From a virus, in the IMG/VR virus record IMGVR_UViG_3300044470_000123, positions 1 to 64,000 of that record: a stretch of DNA of 64,000 nucleotides. One strand, 5' to 3'. A program made the translations under genes and the position numbers. The first letter of the stretch is position 1. Each line of letters opens with the position of its first letter. The notes beneath the pieces were generated by a model that was given only the letters and a program-made list of their open reading frames with translations, had not been told where the DNA came from and did no database searches. Shown here piece by piece: positions 40,171 through 64,000 of the stretch.

Positions 40171-41229
40171 CTAACTCGCCTTCTTAATTTTAGTCTTACC
40201 AACTTTTTTAAGTATACGCTCTTTAGAATTCATACCCTCAAAAGCACTAGAAGCCATAGACCCAGGAAGCTCTTTTTTCTTATCCTTATTAAATAACTCT
40301 TTAATCTCTTCCGCTGTAGCTATCCTAGACCCCTCCATCTTAGTCAAATCAACATCGTTTTTAAGATTATCTCTAAACTGCTTCTGCTTCTCCGCTGCTG
40401 CTGTCTTAGCATCCTCCGCTCTTCTTCTTTCCCCCTCTATACATTTATCCAAGAACTGATCGTGCTTATCTTTATCACCTGACATCTGCCTATTTAACTC
40501 TTTAACTAACTCTTCTCTAGTCCTAAGTGGCTGAGCCCATCCATCCTCTTCCTTCTTCTTCTCTATCCTGCGCTTATCATATCCATACTTAGCTATCTCT
40601 TCCCTAAGATCATCTAACTCTTTTTTATGAAAATCAAATCTACTACCTATTTGCTGAGCACCCTTACCATTAAAAGAAGAAGCTACCATCAATGATAGCC
40701 TAAACTGAGTATTATAGTCTTCTTCCTCGTCTAACTGTTTATTTATTACTATCCAATTCTCTTGAGCATTATTAAGACCTACATTTTTTATACCAGGGAT
40801 CCCGTAATAGTAACTAGTATCCGCTACACTAGTATCAAATACTCTCCAAAGTACCCTTGAACTACCTGTATAACAAAATCCTTCTAAAAACTTAAGAGAG
40901 TCTAAATAGATATTATGTAACTCATCTACGTCCTGTAAAAACTTCAAATAACCTGTTATAGGTATCTTACTGTAAAACTCTAAAAGCTTATTAATAGCCT
41001 CTTCCCTGTTATTTAAACAATTTGATCCGTTTATCATAAACGTTGAAAAAGCTAAACGATATAAAGACCAGTTGTAATCTCCTCCGCTATTATAAAAAGA
41101 TATCTGCTTATACTCTTTATCCGATATAGTCTTGAATACAATAACATTATCCTTATAACGCACAGTTGAAGGAAGAAAGCCGTATGTTATAATTTTTTCT
41201 AAATAGTCATATCCTTCTAATACATCCAT
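40171..41229 (-). CDS. Tail-assembly protein upstream of the tape measure, uncharacterised
   Basis: This 352-residue protein is not recognised. Residues 1-180 are globular with aromatic patches (SFYNSGGDYNWSLYRLAFST). Residues 185-352 are extremely charged helix (DLREEIAKYGYDKRRIEKK, KCIEGERRRAEDAKTAAAEK), typical of chaperone or coiled-coil partners. It directly precedes the tape measure (5 nt), as the second member of the tail-assembly-chaperone pair usually does. Its frame matches that of the gene before it, with only TAA CTT AAC between them. A T4 gp26/gp51-like or gpG-T-like role is inference. Confidence 0.5.
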   Translation of the reverse strand: MDVLEGYDYLEKIITYGFLPSTVRYKDNVIVFKTISDKEYKQISFYNSGGDYNWSLYRLAFSTFMINGSNCLNNREEAINKLLEFYSKIPITGYLKFLQDVDELHNIYLDSLKFLEGFCYTGSSRVLWRVFDTSVADTSYYYGIPGIKNVGLNNAQENWIVINKQLDEEEDYNTQFRLSLMVASSFNGKGAQQIGSRFDFHKKELDDLREEIAKYGYDKRRIEKKKEEDGWAQPLRTREELVKELNRQMSGDKDKHDQFLDKCIEGERRRAEDAKTAAAEKQKQFRDNLKNDVDLTKMEGSRIATAEEIKELFNKDKKKELPGSMASSAFEGMNSKERILKKVGKTKIKKAS

Positions 41230-41235
41230 GTTAAG

Positions 41236-41808
41236 TTATGCCGGTACTACAGGTTCTTTAGGCTCTTCAATCTTTTTAAAAGTTACATCTTTTTCCTCAG
41301 ACTTAGGCTGTTCTTCTTTAGCCTTAGCTGCCTTCTCCTTTTCATCCTCTAATCTCTGACGCTCATCAGCTTCTTTCTGCCTTTGCTCAGGAGATTTAAA
41401 CCAATCATACTTCATACCTTTTTTAAGCTCTTCCTCAGCCTGCTCTTTAATATCAACATAGGCATCAAATAACTTATCTATAATAGCTGTAGGGTAATCA
41501 TTAAATATCCCTCTAAGAAATATAGCCTTATCCTTATCTACTTCTCTACCTTCTGCATTAGTATCTTTTACAACTTTACCTATAGTTTCTCCGTTTATAG
41601 ATACTACAGCTTCACATAATAGTTCTTTTTTAGTCATCTTATAATAGTCTAATCCTTCTAGGTTATCATCAGAAGATATTAAACTATTAACTTTCTTTTC
41701 CTGCTCAACAGAAAGAACGGACAAACCGTAGGTTATACCGTTAACTGTAACAAGCTTACTGAATTGTAGAGACTTTTGAACCGCTACTAAAACATCTTTA
41801 AGAGACAT
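41236..41808 (-). CDS. Tail-assembly chaperone-like protein
   Basis: This 190-residue protein has a compact N-terminal region (KLVTVNGITYGLSVLSVEQE, EAVVSINGETIGKV) and a highly charged C-terminus (EKEKAAKAKEEQPKSEEKD). The layout and position between tail tube and tape measure match gpG- or gp13-type tail-assembly chaperones. The Shine-Dalgarno AAAAAGGAG is 9 nt before the ATG. IscB is inserted between this gene and the tail tube, so this operon step is split by 1.4 kb. No slippery sequence for a programmed frameshift was seen at its 3' end. Confidence 0.5.
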   Translation of the reverse strand: MSLKDVLVAVQKSLQFSKLVTVNGITYGLSVLSVEQEKKVNSLISSDDNLEGLDYYKMTKKELLCEAVVSINGETIGKVVKDTNAEGREVDKDKAIFLRGIFNDYPTAIIDKLFDAYVDIKEQAEEELKKGMKYDWFKSPEQRQKEADERQRLEDEKEKAAKAKEEQPKSEEKDVTFKKIEEPKEPVVPA

Positions 41809-41823
41809 ACTAAAAACTCCTTT

Positions 41824-43224
41824 TTATATGATATATTGTATAGATAATTTAAATATTGATTTTGTATGAAATACTTTTTTTACTGATTTTTTAATATTAA
41901 AATCAATTTTATTTATCCCGTTAAAACAACGAACAGATCTTCCACAATGATGACTACCATTAACCACATATTTTTTACTGTTAATTGTAACTGTATCGTA
42001 AGGCTGTATAGAATATCTATGCCTTCTAATAGATGGTTTAAAACCTTTCCTATTTAACTGTATTATTCTATTATTTTTATGTTTTTGCTTAAAATATGTA
42101 GGATTAATTCTAATCTGATTAGTACCTCCTGCTATAACAAATGCATCATTATAATGGGTCTTTTCTAATCCTAACTCATTCCTATTAACAAAAGTCTCAT
42201 ATCCGTAAACTATCTTACAGTTTGGTAATATTTTTTTATATATGTGTTGAACTATTGTCATAAACGCAGCGTCTTTATATTGTTTATTCCTCTTAAGAGT
42301 GTCAAATAATTTATTTTTATGAAGTTTATCATGACATTTTTCATGCAATAAAGCTAAATTATCTTGCTTATTAGGGCCACCTTTAGATCTAGGTATAATG
42401 TGATGTATATGAGAGGAATTACCTTTACTAAACTCTTTATTACATAGCTGGCACTTTCCTTTTTCTCTGGCCATCAAATAAATTCTCATGTTTTGATACT
42501 CATACATGGGTCCTTGTTGGTACTCTAATTTAGTTATTTTTTGATTTTCTATTTTCTGGATATCAAAATTTCCTACCTCTATAGTTATATCTTCCTCATT
42601 TATAGGAAATCTTAATCTCAGTTTATTGATAAAATTTATATGAGTGTTAAACTTCCTTTTAATTGATGGGGCTAACCAACCTTTTGTTCTGGCGTTAGAT
42701 CTATTGTTGTGTCTAGCCTCTCTATACCACATCTTATCTCTACGTCCACCTCGATACATACTTTTACTTATTAATCTTTCAGGAGTTTTCTGATCCAAAT
42801 AAACTTCTCCTGTAATTATCTCTTCATCTTTAGTTATAACAGAAAATCCTATCTTCTTAGAGCCTGAGTCTATTCCAAAAGAATACTTCTTAACAGTTTC
42901 TCCTGTAGCCTTATTAAGTTGAATAGTAAAGAATAACCCGTTTTCTACGACATGTGCCTCTCCTTTTTTAAGTAGCTTTCTAGCCTTGCAGGGACTGCAA
43001 GGCTCAAGAGGTTTACCCCTCTTATTGAGTACACAAACTTTGGCAAATACCCTCAGGTCTTGCCCCTCTTTGTGTTGAGGTGGATCCACTTCGAGATTGT
43101 TTAAAGTCAGTACTTTGCTCGCCACACTGAGACTTTCGTCTCTGTTTAATGGCATGCTTGTAGAGCTACAGACTTGTGGAGCATCCGTAGGTACGTACTT
43201 TAACTTTCCTTTAAACTGCTGCAT
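41824..43224 (-). CDS. iscB: RNA-guided nuclease IscB (RuvC-HNH, Cas9 ancestor family)
   Basis: This 466-residue protein shows every IscB landmark in order: PLMP-type motif (VLNKRGKPLEPCSPCKARKL, 65-84), RuvC-I GIDSGSK (Asp119), Arg-rich bridge helix (157-180, MYRGGRRDKMWYREARHNNR), RuvC-II ITIEVGNFD (Glu216), HNH zinc motif (C258xxC261, H274-H275, C297) and RuvC-III THYNDAFVIAGG (His357, Asp360). All catalytic residues are present, so it is probably active. Family members cut DNA under guidance from an omega RNA encoded just upstream. The start is uncertain: the first 55 or so residues are unlike other IscBs and overlap likely RNA structure. M24, V34 (GTG) and V46 (GTG) are alternatives, but only the first ATG has AAAAGG before it. 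No TnpA gene lies nearby, so it is probably a stand-alone homing element. Confidence 0.9.
   Translation of the reverse strand: MQQFKGKLKYVPTDAPQVCSSTSMPLNRDESLSVASKVLTLNNLEVDPPQHKEGQDLRVFAKVCVLNKRGKPLEPCSPCKARKLLKKGEAHVVENGLFFTIQLNKATGETVKKYSFGIDSGSKKIGFSVITKDEEIITGEVYLDQKTPERLISKSMYRGGRRDKMWYREARHNNRSNARTKGWLAPSIKRKFNTHINFINKLRLRFPINEEDITIEVGNFDIQKIENQKITKLEYQQGPMYEYQNMRIYLMAREKGKCQLCNKEFSKGNSSHIHHIIPRSKGGPNKQDNLALLHEKCHDKLHKNKLFDTLKRNKQYKDAAFMTIVQHIYKKILPNCKIVYGYETFVNRNELGLEKTHYNDAFVIAGGTNQIRINPTYFKQKHKNNRIIQLNRKGFKPSIRRHRYSIQPYDTVTINSKKYVVNGSHHCGRSVRCFNGINKIDFNIKKSVKKVFHTKSIFKLSIQYII
42982..43004 (-). repeat. 10-bp perfect hairpin inside the iscB PLMP coding region
   Basis: AGCCTTGCAG and CTGCAAGGCT form a 10-bp perfect inverted repeat with a 3-nt loop inside codons for the PLEPCSPCKA motif. 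Such a strong stem in coding sequence may extend the omega RNA into the frame, lower translation, or just reflect the two Cys codons. The last is possible because both arms encode Pro/Cys and Cys/Lys. Confidence 0.5.
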
Positions 43225-43331
43225 AAAAGTTTACCTTTTAAGCCCTCTAATCAACTCTTACCCAGAACCTCACGGTTCTAACCATTTTAGATACTTTTAA
43301 AGTGGCAATTGACATGGGAGGTGTTGACATT
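43129..43331 (-). ncRNA. Candidate IscB omega RNA (HEARO-type) upstream of and overlapping iscB
   Basis: The minus strand from about 43331 starts ATGTCAACACC and contains short stems: ACTTT/AAAGT, then AGAACC-GTGA-GGTTCT with a GNRA tetraloop at 43264-43279, and GAGAC-GAAA-GTCTC with a second GNRA loop at 43129-43142, which lies within the first 32 codons of the long iscB frame. Family knowledge: IscB nucleases use an RNA encoded directly 5' of the gene, with its guide at the 5' end. The guide would then be the bases just 5' of the scaffold, within about 43332-43350 (AT-rich). The exact ends are not determined. Confidence 0.55.
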
Positions 43332-43499
43332 ATAAAAAAACTAATAATAAACTAAGAAAGAATAGTTTCCAGAAGAAAATAGAAGATTAAAATTTTATAT
43401 TTTATTATATAAAAAATATAAGATATGATATTTTATATGAATTTTACTGGAAAACTTTTCATTTCACAATACCTAAATTTTCACATTAACTATTAAAAC

Positions 43500-44219
43500 T
43501 TAACCTTGTGAACTTTGTGTTAAATACTTTGAAACAGCAACTGGATTAAATAAATCTGTTCCGTTTATAAGAGGCACAGTTTCGTCATAAACTAATAGCT
43601 GCTCAGCTACTATGTCTGTGACATTTACTGTTACGTCTTCTTGTACAAGAGCAGTATCAGAAGCAAATGAAACGCTCCAGTCTGACATCCAACAAGCTTC
43701 ATACCAAGTTACTACAGCCCTAAGATCCATAGGATTCCCTGTTAAATCAATAGAACTGCTGCCGCCTGTAGGAGTACTTACACCACCATCCTGATTGAAA
43801 GTAGATCCACCACTAGTAAAATCCATAGCTAAAGCACCTACAATAAGTTCTTGTCTAAGATCAAAAGGGTACTTATGATGTCGAAGGGATCTTACTAGCC
43901 CATCTACCCCTCCACGATAACCAAATACCTGCATAATCATAGACAAGTACTGGGCTGTACGAGTGATAGTAATACTCATAGGATCTGTCATACCAGGAAC
44001 GAGCTCCATAACCTTATCGCCATAACCTATCCCTCTAACAGGCTCTATAGTGCGGCCTTCTGAAGGATTAAAGTTAGCAACTACGCCTATCTGCGTACCA
44101 CCATCAGAATCATCTCCTGATGTTATAGCATATAATCTATTTCTGGCGCTTACTACTGAAAAAGTTTCAGGAGTCACACCTCTCTGGTTTTCAACATATG
44201 TTTGACCTACATTAGACAT
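43500..44219 (-). CDS. Tail tube protein
   Basis: This 239-residue protein has motifs of myoviral tube proteins: GIGYGDKVMELVPGMTDPMS then ITITRTAQYLSMIMQVF, a YPFDLRQEL turn and a WYEACWMSDWSVSFASDTAL strand before VQEDVTVNVT. The tube fold is a beta sandwich that stacks as hexamers inside the sheath. The size is in the usual range. It lies downstream of the sheath gene and upstream of the chaperone genes, the canonical tube position apart from the iscB insertion 275 nt beyond. A strong Shine-Dalgarno (AAGGAGACACT) precedes the ATG. Confidence 0.8.
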   Translation of the reverse strand: MSNVGQTYVENQRGVTPETFSVVSARNRLYAITSGDDSDGGTQIGVVANFNPSEGRTIEPVRGIGYGDKVMELVPGMTDPMSITITRTAQYLSMIMQVFGYRGGVDGLVRSLRHHKYPFDLRQELIVGALAMDFTSGGSTFNQDGGVSTPTGGSSSIDLTGNPMDLRAVVTWYEACWMSDWSVSFASDTALVQEDVTVNVTDIVAEQLLVYDETVPLINGTDLFNPVAVSKYLTQSSQG

Positions 44220-44238
44220 TTTAGTGTCTCCTTAATAA

Positions 44239-45297
44239 TTATCTAGTTGTATCGAAAAGTGAACTTAACTTCATAATTTCAGGATCATTCATATCGGCTT
44301 TAAAATCAGGAAGAACATCGGGACCAACTTCAAAAGAAATCCCCTCAATACTTGCTTCTACTGACTCACTAGCCTCTGCTTCTTCTTTCTTACCACGAGA
44401 CTTCTCTTTAAGCTCTTCCATCTTCTTTGCTTTATCTGCTTTCTCACTCTTTTTCTTAAGATCTGCTACTTCTTTTTCTGTATCAACCTTAGCAGCATCC
44501 TTCTCTTCACCTTGACCAATATCTTTTTCCTTCTCTTCCTTCTCTTTATCTCCACCAACTTCTTTAGCTTTCTCTGCAGTTTCTTCATCTGCATCTTCAG
44601 CAGCTTCTTTTCTAACTGGGCCTTTAGACTTCTTATACATATCTGACTCAAGATTCTTACTCTCATCAGGAACCTGCTCAGGAGTCAAAGCTCTTCCAGT
44701 ATCCTGCTCAGTAGGTCTTACACCTTTAAGCTCAGGAGCTTTCTTAGCATCAGGCATCTGTACTTTAGTCTGATGACGACCAGTATCTTCATTAACTGTC
44801 TTAGTCATACCAAGAACATCTCTAACTAGATTCTGTGCAACAGCATCAAACGCTTCCTTAGTCCAAGAATCTTCAGTAGATGCACTCTTTGCAACAGTCT
44901 CACTAGCAGCAACTTCAGCCGCACCAGCAAGATCTGGATAAGCACTAATCATCTTATCCTCAGGGATCCCATGTTTACGAGCAACAGCCTTAAGCTGGTC
45001 TGGGGAAAGTTTACCCTTCATCCCGCCAGCTCCCTGATATCGATCTGTGAGAGGTACTCTATTCTGAAAAGCACCACCAGGCTGACCGTATGGCTGAACA
45101 CCTAACATAGCATCTTTCTCAGCCTTGTCCTCATCCTTCTCTTCTTTATACTCAGCAGAAACCATACTGGCAAACTTCTCCTGAGTCATACCCTTAAGAG
45201 CCGTAGCCATAGCTTTAAGATCTACACTCATGGGATTACTATCTGCAAATATCTCTGAATAACCTTCGAATCTCTTCGCTAATACTAACTTATCCAT
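44239..45297 (-). CDS. Highly charged virion or scaffold-like protein, uncharacterised
   Basis: This 352-residue protein has an N-terminal helical part (1-60), a Gly/Pro/Gln region (65-100), a helix-turn AVARKHGIPEDKMISAYPDL and a C-terminal half that is extremely Lys/Glu-rich (EKEKDIGQGEEKDAAKVDTE). It lies between sheath and tube genes. The composition suggests an assembly factor, tail chaperone or flexible linker rather than an enzyme. No family is recognised. Confidence 0.5.
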   Translation of the reverse strand: MDKLVLAKRFEGYSEIFADSNPMSVDLKAMATALKGMTQEKFASMVSAEYKEEKDEDKAEKDAMLGVQPYGQPGGAFQNRVPLTDRYQGAGGMKGKLSPDQLKAVARKHGIPEDKMISAYPDLAGAAEVAASETVAKSASTEDSWTKEAFDAVAQNLVRDVLGMTKTVNEDTGRHQTKVQMPDAKKAPELKGVRPTEQDTGRALTPEQVPDESKNLESDMYKKSKGPVRKEAAEDADEETAEKAKEVGGDKEKEEKEKDIGQGEEKDAAKVDTEKEVADLKKKSEKADKAKKMEELKEKSRGKKEEAEASESVEASIEGISFEVGPDVLPDFKADMNDPEIMKLSSLFDTTR

Positions 45298-45397
45298 TTG
45301 AAACTACCTTTCTTTGTAATCTTCTATAAAATGAAGATCGTATGTTGAGTGAATATATTTTCCTATTTATAAAACTACTTACTTCCTGTGTTAAAAA

Positions 45398-48343
45398 TTA
45401 AAGACTCTGACTAAGATTCAAGGTCACGATGATCCAGTTCAACGGATATACGGGACTATAGAAAACTTCTACATCAAGCGTCGAAGGATCAGCCTGGTCT
45501 ACCACTACCCTGATCCCCTTAAAGTCCACTATAATCTTATTGTTCTTAAGAGACTGAAAATAAGACTTCAAAGTATTAGTAACCTGTGGTATAATACTAG
45601 GCAAATTCTTCTGACCTATATACTGATCAAGAGCCTGCCTAACACCCTGCTGAACGAAATGCTTAACCTCAACTATACGAGGATCTCTTGTAAGGATATT
45701 ACTCAAATCAGAAGTTAGATACATCCTAATCTTAATCGATGTGGCTAAATCCTGAAGAACAGTACATCCTGAGTTCGCTACAAGCGCAGCAGTAACATCA
45801 TCCAACCTACGATATAACCTGTCAAAGCCTACTACGTTTTTATTAGTAAGAGGTGTAGCTATATCATAAACAGGATCACAGTCTAACCCTGCTACAGCCG
45901 CCGCTATAAATGACCCATCAACAAGATACTGAACATCATTACCAAAAGCATCAGGTATAGTCAATAAAGCAGCCTCAGGATAGATAGGGGTAATCTTCTC
46001 TGATCCTATAGCCTTACACTGCTGGATCGCTGCCTCTGGAGAAGTACCAAAAGCAAATCCTATTACACTTGTACGCTCATTACGATATTTGATGCTACTC
46101 TGTATCGCATTAGAAGTAGATAGATAACCCTGCACCGCAGGACTTGTAGTCATAGGCTGCATAAGCGAAGGCCTTGTCCCATCAGAAAGAGGCTCATTAA
46201 AAGTATCTATAGCATCAAAATAACTCTGATCTGGAGCGTCTGTACCACCAGAAGCTCTCTTTACCTGTAGAAGAGCTACTGACCTTGCACCATTAAGGAA
46301 AGCTAGGTTAGCCCCTAGTACTATCTTATTAGTAATATCTAAAGGACCAAAATCTGTAAAAATATCTCTCATGTTATTGTAAGACTTTACTGTGTAGTCT
46401 GTCTTAGTCTTATCAAAAGTTACATAGTAAGTGTCCCCAACATTAGGCTCATTACCTGACTTATTAAAAGTCTGAAGGATAACTGTGTCACCTGTATTAT
46501 CCTGTGCACCACCAGCAGTACTATCTATAGTAAGATTGATACCAGGTATCGCTTTTACTACAAAAGAAGTAGCAAACTCCCATGTCTGTGAGATCATAGG
46601 ATCAAGAGGAATACCTACAATATAAACTACCTTCTGACCTGTAGTAGGATTATAACCATCTATAGCAGCTTTAAAAGACACTCTGAAACTTGTTACAGAG
46701 TCTATATAAGTCTGACCCTGAAAACCAAGATTAGTAGCACCGGTACCCGTCTTACCTGTACCTGTAACAGCAAAACCACCCACACCATCAAAAGTCACTG
46801 TTACAGTCTCAACAGATGCTGTCAAAGGATCTATCTGTACATTCACAGCTCCAGACCCTGCATAAACAGGAGCTACCGTACTACCTGTACCAAGAGTAAC
46901 ATCTAACGCTGTCCCACTAAACTTAGAAGTAAGTAAATAACGACCTACCCCAGCAGCACCAGGAAGCTCATTAGTAATAGTCCATGTATCGTCTATGATC
47001 AAATTTTCATAGTAAGTCACATAAACACTATCATGCGAAGCAGTGGTCCCTTGTGCAGGAGCTAATTCTAAAGTTATATTGTTACCGTTTATCTGTGTAA
47101 CTAGCACTGGACCCGCAGAGTAAGCTGCATCCCATGAAGTACCTACATAAGCTACTATATTAGCAGGATCCTCTGTAGGAGTACCTGTACCTACACCATC
47201 CACAGGTGTGGAAGGTAGAGTAAATACTGTGTTACCTGAAGCATTAAGAGGAAAACCATCTGTACCTATAATATTTACATTGCCACTCTGTGCTATAGAA
47301 TAAGGAGTAGATATCCTACCATATACCTTAGTATCTGTAAGAGAAGCTATTACATTATTTATAAGAGGCGTAGAACCAGCAGTATAGATACCCGTAGAAG
47401 TCTCATAAGATGTACCCCAGTGTAACTCATTAGAACCCGCAAGAACTACATCCTGACCTATAGAGTAATCTGAAGTATCTGCACTTAGTCCAACTTTAAC
47501 TATGTCATTAACTTCTGCAGCAGGAAGAATATCAAAAGTGTCCTGCCAAGTATTTGTGAAATATGTAACTGTTACCGTGGCTCCATTAACAGGAGGAGTA
47601 GCAAACGTGAAAATACCGTGTGCTCCATCCAAAGCTATAATGGGAGTAATAACATTGTTAACTTTTACTTGAATAACTGGAACAGTTTTTGTATACTCAT
47701 TACCTGGAGTTAGAGGAGTAGGATTATAAAGGATACTTACTGTATTATTTATGTCTGCATCTGTAGCTGACTGACCACCATTATTACCCTTAACTATCCT
47801 TAAACTTCTAACTTTAAAATTTACTGCATTACCATCAGCCTGAAAAGAAAGATCTTCATTCTCTATGTAAGTATCCATCCTCTTAAAATAATAATTGACT
47901 TCAACATCATCTGTTGCAAGAGGGATGTCTACAAGAGTGACCGTACCAAGTAAACCGTTTATAGCGTTCACCGCTACTTGACTACCGTTTACTAAAACTA
48001 TAACCTGACTTGGTAGCGTCGCTACTTTGCCTGTGCCTGATCCCGTTACTAGAGGGAAGTTGGCTACTCTAAACTGATTAGAGATACCCTGTAATCCACC
48101 GATCCAACCTGGAGTAGTACTAGTTAAAGACTCTCCTACTACTTCTTCACCAAGAATAATATTGTCAGATATAGCGGAAGATCCACGGATCATACCAAAA
48201 TTGGATATACGGATCTGCTCAAAACCTACTCCAATTATAGCTGGAAAACGAACATTACCTGCAGCTGATGCTCCAGATGTCTGAGAGATGGTCTGTGTAA
48301 AAACCCCAGGGAATACGAAGGATTCTAAAGGTCCTATTGGCAT
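45398..48343 (-). CDS. Contractile tail sheath protein
   Basis: This 981-residue protein ends with a clear sheath domain: RTSVIGFAFGTSPEAAIQQ then AIGSEKITPIYPEAALLTIP, a GFDRLYRRLDDVTAALVANS segment, KIRMYLTSDLSNILTRDPRI and a final SPVYPLNWIIVTLNLSQSL, the C-terminal strand that links neighbouring subunits. The N-terminal half is enlarged with repeated beta modules (VNGSQVAVNAINGLLGTVTL, VTPIIALDGAHGIFTFATPP) not found in small sheaths. An AAAGGAGATTTAAA site precedes the ATG, and the 167-nt gap upstream holds the shared intergenic motif and a dyad. Confidence 0.85.
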   Translation of the reverse strand: MPIGPLESFVFPGVFTQTISQTSGASAAGNVRFPAIIGVGFEQIRISNFGMIRGSSAISDNIILGEEVVGESLTSTTPGWIGGLQGISNQFRVANFPLVTGSGTGKVATLPSQVIVLVNGSQVAVNAINGLLGTVTLVDIPLATDDVEVNYYFKRMDTYIENEDLSFQADGNAVNFKVRSLRIVKGNNGGQSATDADINNTVSILYNPTPLTPGNEYTKTVPVIQVKVNNVITPIIALDGAHGIFTFATPPVNGATVTVTYFTNTWQDTFDILPAAEVNDIVKVGLSADTSDYSIGQDVVLAGSNELHWGTSYETSTGIYTAGSTPLINNVIASLTDTKVYGRISTPYSIAQSGNVNIIGTDGFPLNASGNTVFTLPSTPVDGVGTGTPTEDPANIVAYVGTSWDAAYSAGPVLVTQINGNNITLELAPAQGTTASHDSVYVTYYENLIIDDTWTITNELPGAAGVGRYLLTSKFSGTALDVTLGTGSTVAPVYAGSGAVNVQIDPLTASVETVTVTFDGVGGFAVTGTGKTGTGATNLGFQGQTYIDSVTSFRVSFKAAIDGYNPTTGQKVVYIVGIPLDPMISQTWEFATSFVVKAIPGINLTIDSTAGGAQDNTGDTVILQTFNKSGNEPNVGDTYYVTFDKTKTDYTVKSYNNMRDIFTDFGPLDITNKIVLGANLAFLNGARSVALLQVKRASGGTDAPDQSYFDAIDTFNEPLSDGTRPSLMQPMTTSPAVQGYLSTSNAIQSSIKYRNERTSVIGFAFGTSPEAAIQQCKAIGSEKITPIYPEAALLTIPDAFGNDVQYLVDGSFIAAAVAGLDCDPVYDIATPLTNKNVVGFDRLYRRLDDVTAALVANSGCTVLQDLATSIKIRMYLTSDLSNILTRDPRIVEVKHFVQQGVRQALDQYIGQKNLPSIIPQVTNTLKSYFQSLKNNKIIVDFKGIRVVVDQADPSTLDVEVFYSPVYPLNWIIVTLNLSQSL

Positions 48344-60285: not shown

Positions 60286-62574
60286 TTAAATTTTCTGCCA
60301 GACTAATAAAACTTCAGCAGCTGTAATATCTTTTCTTCTTGTTGAAGTGAACCAATACATAGTATCTTTTTCTAATAAAGTAGTCTTAGGAAGATACTCT
60401 TTAAGATATCTTGGAATATTTAATACAAAATATCCTTTTGATTTTAGTGCCTTTTCAGCATATATAAATATATTTTTTATAAGTGTTTCCCATTGATTTT
60501 TATCCATTGGCTTTCCATATACTTCTAAATCTATGTATGGCGGTGAAGTCATAATAAGATCACAAGCTACCGGTGCGGTATTTAAATAAAAATCAGAATT
60601 TATTATATGTGCTTTATCTTTTAAACCATAGTAGTCTATAATACTATTTAATCCTTTAGCAGTTTTATCCCAAGGTTCAAATCCACAATAGTTTCTATTA
60701 GCAGATACAGTACCTAATAATCTGCCTCCCCAACCTGCACAGGGGTCTACTACAGTATCTCCAACTTTAGAGTATCTTTCTACAATAGCTTTTGCTACAC
60801 TACACGGGAATCCAGTTACTCCCCCATTAAAGTATACCAAACTTTTATATAAAAAATCCGGCAAAATAGTTTTATTAGCTTTATAAGTGTATATTAAAGC
60901 TGATCTTAGTGCTGTAAAATTATTGAATGTGCTAAAAGGTGATACACCTTTATATTTAGATTCTACCATATGAGGCATAAAATTTTTGAATATTTTATTA
61001 CCTGCGCTTAGATACCTTATAACATTATTATTTTTCCAGATATAACTAGTATTTAGTTCACACATACTCTCATATTCTTTATTAAGATAATCTTCATTTA
61101 TATTAAAATAAGGAAATCCTCTTTTTTGATAATATTCCGTAACTCTATTCCATATATACTCATATTTTTCTGCTATGTAACTATTAATTAAACAAAGATC
61201 AAAATCATTTTCTACTTTAACATCAAATAACTCTGGTAAATGTTGTTTCCAAAAAGACCCTACTTCAGAAGCATCTGGTACTTTATCAGCCATGCACGGT
61301 ATAAGATACTTTGGATTTATCCCTTCCACTCTTACTGTTGATTCATTTTCTAATTTTAGTTTTTCTCGAAATATGTATCTATTCTCAAATTTAGAGATAT
61401 ATTCCTTTTTCATACTCATATCAGTACTACTGCCAAAATAGAAACCGTCATCCATATAATAGCAAGCCCATCCTAGTTCAGTTAGTTCTGAAAATATCTT
61501 TTCTAAATTTTTTGTCCCGTTCTCGTTTATGTATTTGTTATAATCTCCTATATTTGGGCAAGATATACCTAGTTGTTCTATACCTCCAAAAATCATGAGT
61601 TTTTCAGTTGATGAAAAATGTGAGGCAGGTACCGTTACAATATTTGAAACACTGTTATATAAAACCTGTCTTTTTAGATATAAATATGATAATTGTTTTA
61701 AACTGTGATTGGTTACAAAACGCCCATATTCATCTAGATGCCCGTCTCCTGCTAGCCAACCAAGAATACATTGATGCCTTTCTTCTTGAGATAATTCAAA
61801 ACTTGGTTTAGGTAAATTTAGTAAATAGTCTCTTAAATATTCTAAATTTTTAGACCATAGCCTTCTATCATCTAAAATTTCAAGATTATTTTCTTTAAAT
61901 TTTCTTTTAACAACAGTACTAGATATACCTATTTCTTCACACAGTCCTTTCATACTAATTTTTGATTTAATTTTATCATCTAACCAATCTTTATCTATAG
62001 TATCAAATTTATTACTAACCTCATTAACTAGATATTTTCTTAAACTAACAAGACCTATTTTCTTAATATAGGTTAAAATAATATCATCAGATATATAAAC
62101 TCCTAATTCCTTATTTAATATATTACTTATGTCTGATATTCTGTTTCCATCTTCTATCAATTTTTTAGCGTAGTCGTAGGATAGATGACTATAAAGCCAC
62201 TCTTCTTTAGAAGGAAACTTACAATCTACTTTATTTATTAGATGATATTCTATGGTATGTGGAAGGGCATCAAAATTATGCTGTTCTTTAAGTACCTTAC
62301 TAATTTCTTCAGAATACATTAATTTATTAATTCTTAGATCTACTGCTATTTTAGTCATTTCCTCTGACCAAATTGTCTCTTCTTTGATTTCTCTTTTGTT
62401 CTCTAAAAAACCTTTTTTCTTTAATATACTAATCTGTCTTTTTATCCAACGAGGGGATTCATTTAATTTTGCGGCTAGCTCTGGGCGAGTGAGTGTAGAG
62501 AAGTTGTCTATTATGAATGATAACTTCTCTACAGATTTTCTATCGGCAGTAATTCCTTTTGTGGGACCTGACAT
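60286..62574 (-). CDS. LAGLIDADG homing endonuclease fused to a DNA methyltransferase
   Basis: This 762-residue protein has three parts. Residues 1-250 hold helix-turn-helix segments (LTRPELAAKLNESPRWIKRQ; ISMKGLCEEIGISSTVVKRK). Residues 265-480 are a LAGLIDADG endonuclease with motif 1 CILGWLAGDGHL (269-280) and motif 2 LGWACYYMDDGFYFG (about 367-381). Residues 560-762 are an amino-methyltransferase with motif I VVDPCAGWGGRLLG (608-621) and motif IV TSPPY (676-680), an N4-cytosine/N6-adenine type. No intein ends (Cys/Ser start, His-Asn end) are seen, so this is a fusion rather than an intein. A host-type promoter lies upstream, unlike its neighbours. Confidence 0.8.
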   Translation of the reverse strand: MSGPTKGITADRKSVEKLSFIIDNFSTLTRPELAAKLNESPRWIKRQISILKKKGFLENKREIKEETIWSEEMTKIAVDLRINKLMYSEEISKVLKEQHNFDALPHTIEYHLINKVDCKFPSKEEWLYSHLSYDYAKKLIEDGNRISDISNILNKELGVYISDDIILTYIKKIGLVSLRKYLVNEVSNKFDTIDKDWLDDKIKSKISMKGLCEEIGISSTVVKRKFKENNLEILDDRRLWSKNLEYLRDYLLNLPKPSFELSQEERHQCILGWLAGDGHLDEYGRFVTNHSLKQLSYLYLKRQVLYNSVSNIVTVPASHFSSTEKLMIFGGIEQLGISCPNIGDYNKYINENGTKNLEKIFSELTELGWACYYMDDGFYFGSSTDMSMKKEYISKFENRYIFREKLKLENESTVRVEGINPKYLIPCMADKVPDASEVGSFWKQHLPELFDVKVENDFDLCLINSYIAEKYEYIWNRVTEYYQKRGFPYFNINEDYLNKEYESMCELNTSYIWKNNNVIRYLSAGNKIFKNFMPHMVESKYKGVSPFSTFNNFTALRSALIYTYKANKTILPDFLYKSLVYFNGGVTGFPCSVAKAIVERYSKVGDTVVDPCAGWGGRLLGTVSANRNYCGFEPWDKTAKGLNSIIDYYGLKDKAHIINSDFYLNTAPVACDLIMTSPPYIDLEVYGKPMDKNQWETLIKNIFIYAEKALKSKGYFVLNIPRYLKEYLPKTTLLEKDTMYWFTSTRRKDITAAEVLLVWQKI

Positions 62575-62654: not shown

Positions 62655-64000
62655 TTAAGACCATCCTCCTCTACTTCCGCTTGCGAAATTACGCCTTGAC
62701 TGAGTACCTGGACGTGAAAAAGGGCCAAGTGATGAACTTATGCCTATCCCATAACGTGGCTGATTTAATCCTTTTATTATCTTTATCGAACGTTTAATTA
62801 ACTCTCTAGATTTTTCCCATTCCGCTAGAAAATTATCTTTCATTGCTTCATACTTTGAAGATTTCTCTATGTCAAGGGATACTCCAGAAATTGAATAACT
62901 ATTGTGGGCTAAAATTCCAGAGTCAAGTACAAAATTTTCTGCAGCAGGTACTGAAAAATCATAGGTTTTATTTTGGGGTTCTATTTCTTCTTTTTGGACT
63001 ATTTCTATAGGTTCAAATTTGTCTGAAAATTCTAAACCTACTATTTTATCTCCTACTTTTAAATCTTTAGTCTTAATAGGTTCTTTTGTGTCCCATAAAA
63101 ATAAACTATGATCTTCTGTAACTTCAATTGAGTTAATTTCTGTACTTATTCTAAACATTTTCTTTTGAGAGGTATTATGCTGCATAAAATTAGAAACAGG
63201 GACCCACTCTAGTTTTTCCGACTTATTAACCATGGCTTGAACTTCAAGTGTTCCGTTAAAAAAAGATTTTTTTATCTTTTCCTTATTAATTTCTCTTATT
63301 CTTTCTTGTAAACTTTTTATAGCTTCTATACCTACATAAGGATCTTTTTTTATGTCATGTTCCTTAATCCTTATAATAGTCCAACCTCTGTTCTTAAGAA
63401 AAGTTTCTTTTCTTTTATCTATCTCTATTATCCTTTTATTTCCTTCAAAACCACAAGATTTACATCCGTGCCAATAACAGCCATCTACCTCTACTGCTAT
63501 TTTTGCTAAAGGATCCGCTTCATCTATAGAATAAAATCTATATGTATACTCTGTAACAAAACCAGTCAATCCTCTTTCTTGCATTTTTTCTTTATAGGTT
63601 AAATGTACTGAGCTTGTTTTTTGCATCATTTTTCTTGCCCTTGCTGCTGATTTATCAAGAGCCTCTTTATTATCTTTAACGTATTGTTTGTTTTTTTCTC
63701 TAAACTCCGGGTCTGACCACATTTTTTTAGATTGTTTCCTATGAAGCTCTATAATTTCAGGTCTGTTTTGATACTCTATAGCCCACTCACTTCTTTTTTT
63801 TAAAAATTCTGGATCAGAGTTAAGTTTTATACTAGCAATTTTTATTTGTTCTCTAGTTATTTCTCCTTCAGAAGTTTGAAATCTTTTTTTAAGGGTCTCT
63901 GATTGTTTCTGTTTTCTTTTTTCAGAGTGCTTTATTTGTTCATTATATACTCTAGAACAAATTCTTATCCTATCATTATTCTCTAATTTATCACAATAAT
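62655..64000 (-). CDS. Intein-containing virion protein, C-terminal part (partial at right edge)
   Basis: The frame is open to the right edge and ends at 62655; at least 448 residues are visible. The first 85 or so are basic helices with NUMOD-like repeats (NSDPEFLKKRSEW, WSDPEFREKNKQY). A Vsr-like nuclease follows (KIAVEVDGCYWHGC, then FLKNRGWTIIRIKEHDI). Next is an intein splicing part: NGTLEVQAMV, TEDHSLF (block B) and AAENFVLDSGILAHN|S (block G, with Ser as +1). The C-extein is 84 residues (SYSISGVSLDIEKSSKYEAM to the end SGSRGGWS) and is not identified, though it is likely a capsid- or neck-side virion protein. Intein block A lies beyond the edge. Confidence 0.75.
   Translation of the reverse strand, partial: YCDKLENNDRIRICSRVYNEQIKHSEKRKQKQSETLKKRFQTSEGEITREQIKIASIKLNSDPEFLKKRSEWAIEYQNRPEIIELHRKQSKKMWSDPEFREKNKQYVKDNKEALDKSAARARKMMQKTSSVHLTYKEKMQERGLTGFVTEYTYRFYSIDEADPLAKIAVEVDGCYWHGCKSCGFEGNKRIIEIDKRKETFLKNRGWTIIRIKEHDIKKDPYVGIEAIKSLQERIREINKEKIKKSFFNGTLEVQAMVNKSEKLEWVPVSNFMQHNTSQKKMFRISTEINSIEVTEDHSLFLWDTKEPIKTKDLKVGDKIVGLEFSDKFEPIEIVQKEEIEPQNKTYDFSVPAAENFVLDSGILAHNSYSISGVSLDIEKSSKYEAMKDNFLAEWEKSRELIKRSIKIIKGLNQPRYGIGISSSLGPFSRPGTQSRRNFASGSRGGWS

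What the first reader, a model, noticed from the sequence alone, without database searches (positions are those of the whole stretch)
43129..43350. Candidate omega RNA with guide, overlapping the 5' end of the iscB frame
The region upstream of iscB contains short stems with GNRA loops (AGAACC-GTGA-GGTTCT; GAGAC-GAAA-GTCTC), the second within codons 28-32 of the long frame. The first 55 residues of that frame look unlike IscB, so the RNA may overlap it and the true protein start may be downstream. The likely guide is the AT-rich stretch at about 43332-43350, which should match an empty insertion site.
Basis: partly seen in the sequence, partly recalled or inferred. Interest (0 to 1): 0.75.

Follow-up and report, generated by a model that had tools for sequence, protein, structure and literature searches.

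The report
Phage IscB with start-codon-bearing guide RNA
A phage carries an RNA-guided DNA-cutting gene (IscB) squeezed between two virion genes, and its guide RNA seems to double as the front end of the enzyme's own coding sequence, in a subfamily shared by phages, bacteria and archaea.

Summary
Rfam HEARO (omega RNA, RF02033) matches window 43080-43328, minus strand, full length, 91.2 bits; both stems are real; the guide is the AT-rich stretch just 5' (about 43344-43329). The RNA covers the first 48 codons of the 466-aa iscB frame. The element is a ~1.5 kb insertion between two virion genes that lie 40-322 bp apart in 66 of 73 loci where both were found. It belongs to an IscB subfamily (phages, bacterial and archaeal MAGs) in which a start codon lies inside the omega RNA, in frame with IscB: over 24 members no stop in that frame, 99 and 76 in the other two. 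In most members the Shine-Dalgarno is the 5' strand of a covarying pseudoknot. In Silviavirus phages a 16-nt IscB guide matches the empty site 16/16 and the filled allele has a synonymously recoded copy: homing-like. For the window's own guide no empty site could be shown.

The parts
43329..43344 (-). Predicted guide (16 nt 5' of the omega RNA scaffold)
   Evidence: position 5' of the HEARO model start at 43328; guide length of about 16 nt is recalled for IscB; no target shown for this guide
43080..43328 (-). omega RNA (HEARO, RF02033)
   Evidence: 91.2 bits, model 1-211 of 211; fold energy z -2.07 for guide plus RNA
43264..43279 (-).
   Evidence: sequence, alignment
43243..43247 (-). 5' strand of the pseudoknot (GAGGG), purine-rich; Shine-Dalgarno position in other members
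43234..43239 (-). Possible Shine-Dalgarno AAAAGG, 9 nt before ATG, in a small hairpin
   Evidence: sequence; -3.9 kcal/mol with anti-SD, weak
41824..43224 (-). iscB frame, 466 aa from ATG inside the omega RNA
43166..43190 (-). Stem CTACGGAT/GTCTGTAG of the omega RNA inside the reading frame
   Evidence: 97.4% of cells paired, 6 of 8 pairs with both-side change across 24 members
43129..43142 (-).
43093..43097 (-). 3' strand of the pseudoknot (AUCUC)
43054..43056 (-). Alternative start CTG (codon 57; TTG/GTG in many relatives) after GAGGGG (43068-43063)
   Evidence: third-position bias begins just after it
43500..44219 (-). Left-flank virion gene (tube-like by position; name is inference)
   Evidence: orthologues in 85 loci incl. 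Tunturi_5 'virion structural protein'
41236..41808 (-). Right-flank gene (chaperone-like by position; name is inference)
   Evidence: orthologues in 73 loci
41843..41850 (-). Approximate right end of the insertion; the last iscB codons seem to come from the phage spacer
   Evidence: best joint alignment with the empty L001 spacer at 41843; neighbours score nearly as well

Best explanation
The region is the guide-plus-scaffold RNA of a phage-borne IscB element that behaves like a free-standing homing endonuclease. The transcript begins with a guide copied from the left flank, folds into the HEARO scaffold and is bound by IscB, which would cut an empty allele next to a TAM so that repair copies the element in. 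In this IscB subfamily the same RNA also carries a start codon, and the frame runs on without a stop into IscB. In most members the ribosome-binding site is the 5' strand of the RNA's pseudoknot, so folding into a guide and being translated should exclude each other; this would limit IscB once the RNA is bound. Shown: the RNA, the protein family, the insertion, the open frame, the covariation. Inferred: cutting, homing, use of the upstream start, the switch.
For: RNA. Protein; putative catalytic residues D119, E216, H274, H275, H298, H357, D360 invariant in 9 of 9 aligned members (their role is recalled). Insertion: spacer 1691 bp in the window; 40-322 bp in 66 of the 73 loci (window and its own copy L005 included) with both genes. 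Related IscB at another point of the same spacer in L048/L049, a different IscB one gene further in L021, a homing endonuclease (phrog_314) in the same spacer of LR745208. HEARO 5' end equals the insertion boundary within 1 nt in L010, L021 and L101. Guide against empty site: 16/16 VL10, 15/16 CIFT28, 16/16 Golestan101-M, 14/16 L021, 14/16 L101. VL10's right flank keeps TNSKKKG but is recoded to 12/16 and gives the next gene a new ATG. Overlap: 0, 99 and 76 stops in frames 0, +1, +2 of 24 members; column resampling expects 0.67 stops per sequence; start relocated in frame in archaeal members; pseudoknot pairs 1-4 standard in 24 of 24, with both-side changes in 5, 6 and 1 sequences at pairs 2-4.
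Against: Window guide not matched to any empty site. Extension codon positions vary equally (0.357/0.342/0.341) against 0.386/0.295/0.64 in the core. pLDDT 26-36 for residues 1-60 (shallow alignment, whole model only 58.8). Internal TTG/GTG starts with strong SD in several members (L101 -12.0, L196 -10.5, L111 -10.2). The window's own upstream SD is weak (-3.9) and is not the pseudoknot strand; L111 has none. L151 carries the subfamily RNA with a broken frame; L208 and L215 do not run cleanly into IscB. In L016 the HEARO model start is 38 nt off the insertion boundary, and the downstream gene is also swapped. No RNA-seq, no nuclease assay.
Confidence: 0.6

Rival explanations
1. The omega RNA ends where the protein begins: IscB starts at the internal CTG/TTG/GTG (43056 in the window), and the upstream frame is open only because the conserved RNA lacks stops in that frame.
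For: No codon-position signature upstream, sharp onset after codon 57; disorder prediction; strong SD before the internal start in several members. In non-members a frame anchored on the UUAAA motif is open to the HEARO 3' end in 22 of 42, so openness of the 3' half is not rare in itself.
Against: 0 of 24 kept members have a stop although column resampling gives one or more in 51%; with members clustered at 80% identity (11 clusters) the chance is about 4e-4, at 70% (4 clusters) only 0.06. ATG relocated in frame in archaeal members; in L107, L108, L206 and L212 the UUAAAC motif is shifted by one base yet the frame is restored. CTG is a poor start in the window.
Confidence: 0.35
2. A decaying or immobile IscB insertion in the phage, no longer homing.
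For: No empty-site match shown for the window's guide; L048/L049 and the window sit at different points of the spacer, so this lineage does not only home to one site.
Against: Intact frame, HEARO above the curated cut-off, conserved putative catalytic residues.
Confidence: 0.15
3. The RNP is used by the phage against co-infecting phages or to regulate phage genes rather than for its own spread.
For: Phage-borne, guide to phage-like late-gene DNA; IsrB-like proteins without HNH also occur in this gene block (L051, L054).
Against: Exact insertion at the guide flank, recoded target in Silviavirus and other homing enzymes in the same block point to homing; the two are not exclusive.
Confidence: 0.2

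Closest known systems
IscB / HEARO (OMEGA) systems, Rfam RF02033, OgeuIscB
   Same: Scaffold RNA, PLMP-RuvC-HNH protein, guide at the RNA's 5' end, no tnpA needed
   Different: Start codon and Shine-Dalgarno lie inside the scaffold about 145 nt before its 3' end; pseudoknot strand is GGAGG/GGGGG/GAGGG instead of the Rfam consensus Gccaa; placed between phage virion genes
IsrB omega RNA (DtIsrB, PMC9581776, passages read)
   Same: Authors note the Shine-Dalgarno lies inside the omega RNA (terminal hairpin SL7) and suggest regulation of expression
   Different: There the coding region begins after the RNA; here some 48 codons lie inside it, and the SD is (in most members) the pseudoknot strand
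TnpB and its omega RNA (PMC10278001, start of abstract in search listings only)
   Same: Guide RNA made from the mRNA of the nuclease
   Different: TnpB's RNA overlaps the 3' end of the gene (recalled); here the overlap is at the 5' end
Free-standing phage homing endonucleases (GIY-YIG, HNH of T4-like phages; recalled)
   Same: Intergenic insertion in late genes, empty alleles in relatives, recoded flank
   Different: Target set by a guide RNA, not by the protein

Membership tests
HEARO / IscB omega RNA (RF02033) | Covariance-model score above the curated gathering score | tested here: met
   91.2 against 83 bits, full length
HEARO / IscB omega RNA (RF02033) | iscB downstream on the same strand | tested here: met
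IscB | N-terminal PLMP/RRXRR, split RuvC and HNH | tested here: met
   Pfam RRXRR 63-238 and HNH 258-303; PDB IscB hits
IscB | RuvC and HNH catalytic residues present | tested here: met
   D119, E216, H274/275, H298, H357, D360 invariant in 9 of 9; the role of these positions is recalled
IscB | Guide matches DNA next to a TAM; RNP cuts DNA | not testable with these tools
   no assay; window guide unmatched
IS200/IS605 transposon | tnpA nearby | tested here: not met
   six frames of 40171-48343 were scanned against Pfam and none is a transposase; PMC9755519 section 9 says only few HEARO nucleases have TnpA
Homing endonuclease gene (free-standing) | Occupied and empty alleles at one site in relatives | tested here: met
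   spacer 40-322 bp in 66 of 73 loci
Homing endonuclease gene (free-standing) | Enzyme cuts the empty allele | tested here: inconclusive
   guide/empty-site match in 4 other phage lineages, not for the window; no cutting assay

The most novel reading that the evidence does not exclude
A bifunctional guide RNA: in this IscB subfamily the omega RNA is at once the guide scaffold and the first 50-60 codons of the nuclease mRNA. Its pseudoknot strand is (in most members) the Shine-Dalgarno sequence, so each transcript is either translated or becomes a guide; IscB binding its RNA would shut off its own synthesis. Used by phages as an RNA-guided homing endonuclease that recodes the copied flank to protect itself.
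Probability: 0.4. Interest if true: 0.78.

Novelty: new variant of a known kind. Interest (0 to 1): 0.62.

Why it matters
How OMEGA systems balance making the nuclease against making its guide is open. A subfamily whose ribosome-binding site is a strand of the guide scaffold makes that directly testable by mutating a few bases. The phage cases with exact empty sites and a synonymously recoded flank also offer a clean natural system for RNA-guided homing between phages.

Tried and rejected
Close relatives of the window DNA in phage records: none. A viral scan with the window's IscB alone found none; the two-member alignment found L101 and L103 besides the contigs of L048/L049. Matching the window's guide to the empty spacer of L001: not significant. 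Extension against the PDB: only one chance hit, E 6.7. Extended N-terminus in annotated plasmid IscBs: 1 of 32 records covers 80% of a 120-residue query; the annotated CDS there (L223) starts at 1309, after the match start at 1201, and I did not analyse its RNA. A consensus fold for the spacer element in AT-rich relatives: none predicted. Literature: full-text searches showed no paper in their listings that announces an IscB start inside the omega RNA; the library lacks most subscription papers, and the original HEARO and OMEGA papers were not read here.

Rows dropped before counts: from the 24-member set L151 (start out of frame), L208 and L215 (no clean run into an IscB core), L106 (5' part missing), and duplicate or near-identical loci L105, L135, L140, L145, L148, L150. 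L203 and L204 were kept although their IscB looks cut or altered soon after the N-terminus. HEARO hits reported without a stored locus, and several weak ones, were not analysed. Of PMC9755519 I read sections 9 and 10 and passages; of PMC9581776 and PMC13346280 passages only; the rest search listings.

Full report
What is there. The window is 64,000 bases of a 68,105-base virus record. Rfam RF02033 (HEARO) is found once, at 43080-43328 minus, full length, 91.2 bits, over the gathering score of 83. The overlapping frame 43224-41824 is an IscB; its similarity to OgeuIscB starts at residue 61, so the first 55-60 residues are indeed unlike that IscB.

Where it sits. The element lies between a virion gene (43500-44219) and the next late gene (41236-41808). 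Using the first gene, 80 loci were fetched from IMG/VR (439 stretches encode a relative, the best 80 kept). Among 85 loci with the first gene (the window, its own copy L005 and two annotated phages included) both genes were found in 73: 66 have a spacer of 40-322 bp; the exceptions are the window (1691), its copy L005 (other strand, not measured), L007 (1330), L049 (2714), L068 (3406), L081 (998) and L076 (called starts overlap). What fills the gaps: HEARO-IscB plus a second ORF in L049; a homing endonuclease (phrog_314) in L007; an intein-bearing gene and another gene in L068; a second copy of the virion gene in L081 (by eye). L048 carries the same IscB insertion but its contig ends before the right-hand gene. 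L021 has another HEARO-IscB one junction further on, L051 and L054 an IsrB-like protein (RRXRR without HNH; L051 was scanned), L086 and L087 HNH proteins just before the virion gene. This gene block is a hot spot for homing-type genes.

Does phage IscB home? For the window the test fails for lack of a close relative: joining the flanks and aligning to the empty spacer of L001 (67% protein identity in the flanking gene) puts the right end near 41843, but 594 of 1000 shuffled guides do as well. Elsewhere it works. In Staphylococcus Silviavirus VL10 (L010) homology to the empty Romulus locus (L095) stops at base 2717 and the HEARO model starts at 2718 (the model score there is only 32.5 bits). 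The 16 bases before it match the empty site 16 of 16, followed there by AGGTGATG. The right flank of the filled allele repeats the same stretch with AGT to TCG and AAA to AAG, keeping TNSKKKG but leaving only 12 of 16 matches, and the end of iscB supplies a new ATG for that gene. CIFT_MFB_MRSA28 (L098) has the same site, 15 of 16. In Baoshanvirus Golestan101-M (L016) the boundary with PSU4 (L094) gives 16 of 16, though the model start is 38 nt away and the downstream gene is exchanged as well. In L021 against L020 (about 85% identical flank) the guide is 14 of 16 and the element sits between a stop codon and the next ATG; in L101 against L222 (74%) homology ends at the model start and the guide is 14 of 16. 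Matches of 14 of 16 are about what the flank identity alone would give; the weight lies on the coincidence of RNA 5' end and insertion boundary and on the recoded flank. TAMs were not determined; IsrB TAMs given in PMC9581776 are TTGA and ATGG (passages), and L021's right flank begins ATGG, L020's ATGA.

The overlap. IscB relatives of the window were sought with an alignment of the window and L049 (293 of 453 residues identical): L101 and L103 in phages (L103 lies on the same 173 kb contig as L017, whose own spacer is empty) and 28 loci in genomes. Of 12 loci examined, 10 have ATGCAG inside the RNA, in frame with IscB; L109 lacks it and L106's RNA is cut. HEARO searches in 395, 232, 395, 9 and 292 genomes of five phyla added more. 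Of 66 HEARO loci with an iscB frame, 23 (six of them duplicates or near-duplicates) have ATGCAG in frame, and 9 of the other 43 overlap by 100 nt or more; 8 of these are archaeal relatives in which the start has moved 12 or 21 nt upstream in frame (L215 among them was dropped later), one (L158) is unrelated. In the 24 members kept, frame 0 has no stop in 1206 codons, frames +1 and +2 have 99 and 76, in every member. The distance from the RNA's 5' end to the start takes every value modulo 3, the distance from start to IscB does not.

How strong is this? Sampling each alignment column at random gives 0.67 stops per sequence and at least one in 51%. With members clustered at 80% identity (11 clusters) no stop at all has probability about 4e-4; at 70% (4 clusters) 0.06. 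In L107, L108, L206 and L212 the conserved UUAAAC is one base out of phase and the frame is restored before IscB. Shine-Dalgarno energy at the upstream start is -3.9 or better in 23 of 24 and at or below -8.4 in 17 of 24 (background 5th percentile -8.3); the window has -3.9 and L111 +1.8.

Against translation of the extension: the three codon positions vary equally in it (0.357, 0.342, 0.341) while the core shows 0.386, 0.295, 0.64, and the change comes right after an internal TTG/GTG (CTG 43056 in the window), which in L101, L110, L111 and L196 has a Shine-Dalgarno of -8.9 to -12.0. AlphaFold leaves residues 1-60 unordered in a model that is poor overall (58.8). In 22 of 42 non-members a frame anchored on UUAAA is also open to the end of the RNA. 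The likeliest reading is that the frame is kept open because ribosomes enter upstream, at least part of the time, while the peptide itself is free to follow the RNA; two starts may be in use. This is inference.

The RNA is under selection in the same stretch: the stem at 43190-43166, inside the frame, is paired in 97.4% of cells with both-side changes in 6 of 8 pairs; the pseudoknot's pairs 1-4 are standard in 24 of 24, with both-side changes in 5, 6 and 1 sequences at pairs 2-4, while its fifth pair fails in 22. Both helices together: 41 both-side cells against 10.8 in shuffles. The 5' strand is GGAGG, GGGGG, GAGGG or GGGAG, so in most members it is the Shine-Dalgarno of the upstream start. 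In the window it ends 18 nt before the ATG, too far, and the nearer AAAAGG sits in a small hairpin.

Prior art. PMC9755519 (sections 9 and 10) gives RF02033 hits in 65% of 5' UTRs and over 16% of fragments viral or prophage. PMC9581776 (passages) has the Shine-Dalgarno in IsrB's terminal hairpin and suggests regulation of expression. PMC13346280 (passages) lists HEARO in Silviavirus phages. None of the passages read describes a start inside the scaffold or the recoded flank; the library is incomplete. So: a confirmed, ordinary omega RNA in family terms, a new variant in its overlap with the coding sequence, with a plausible but unproved switch.

Noticed in passing
window 43330-43500 and the same spacer in L001, L017-L093: The spacer after the virion gene holds a noncoding element with an outer inverted repeat (window GTTTTCCAG...CTGGAAAC) around repeated CAGATAA / AGATGTGAAT-like motifs. 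In 9 GC-rich relatives an 11-bp outer stem is predicted, 3 of its pairs with both-side changes; in 10 AT-rich ones no consensus fold.
   Followed up: partly
window 60286-62574 and 62655-63722: A DNA methylase-like protein with a LAGLIDADG_2 match and a protein with intein-splicing and DUF559 matches: further homing elements in the same phage.
   Followed up: no
L051 5010-5939 and L054 4233-5162: IsrB-like proteins (RRXRR, no HNH in L051) directly upstream of the virion gene; no HEARO found in L051.
   Followed up: no
L010 4235 and L098: Filled Silviavirus alleles give the downstream resolvase-like gene a new ATG and a synonymously recoded start.
   Followed up: yes
L049 2392-3330: Second inserted ORF with zinc-finger-like matches between iscB and the next gene, endonuclease-like by eye only.
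   Followed up: no
G004 and G1170 loci: Single genomes with 7 HEARO copies each, several (in G004) without iscB found downstream within the stretch held: possible stand-alone guides.
   Followed up: no
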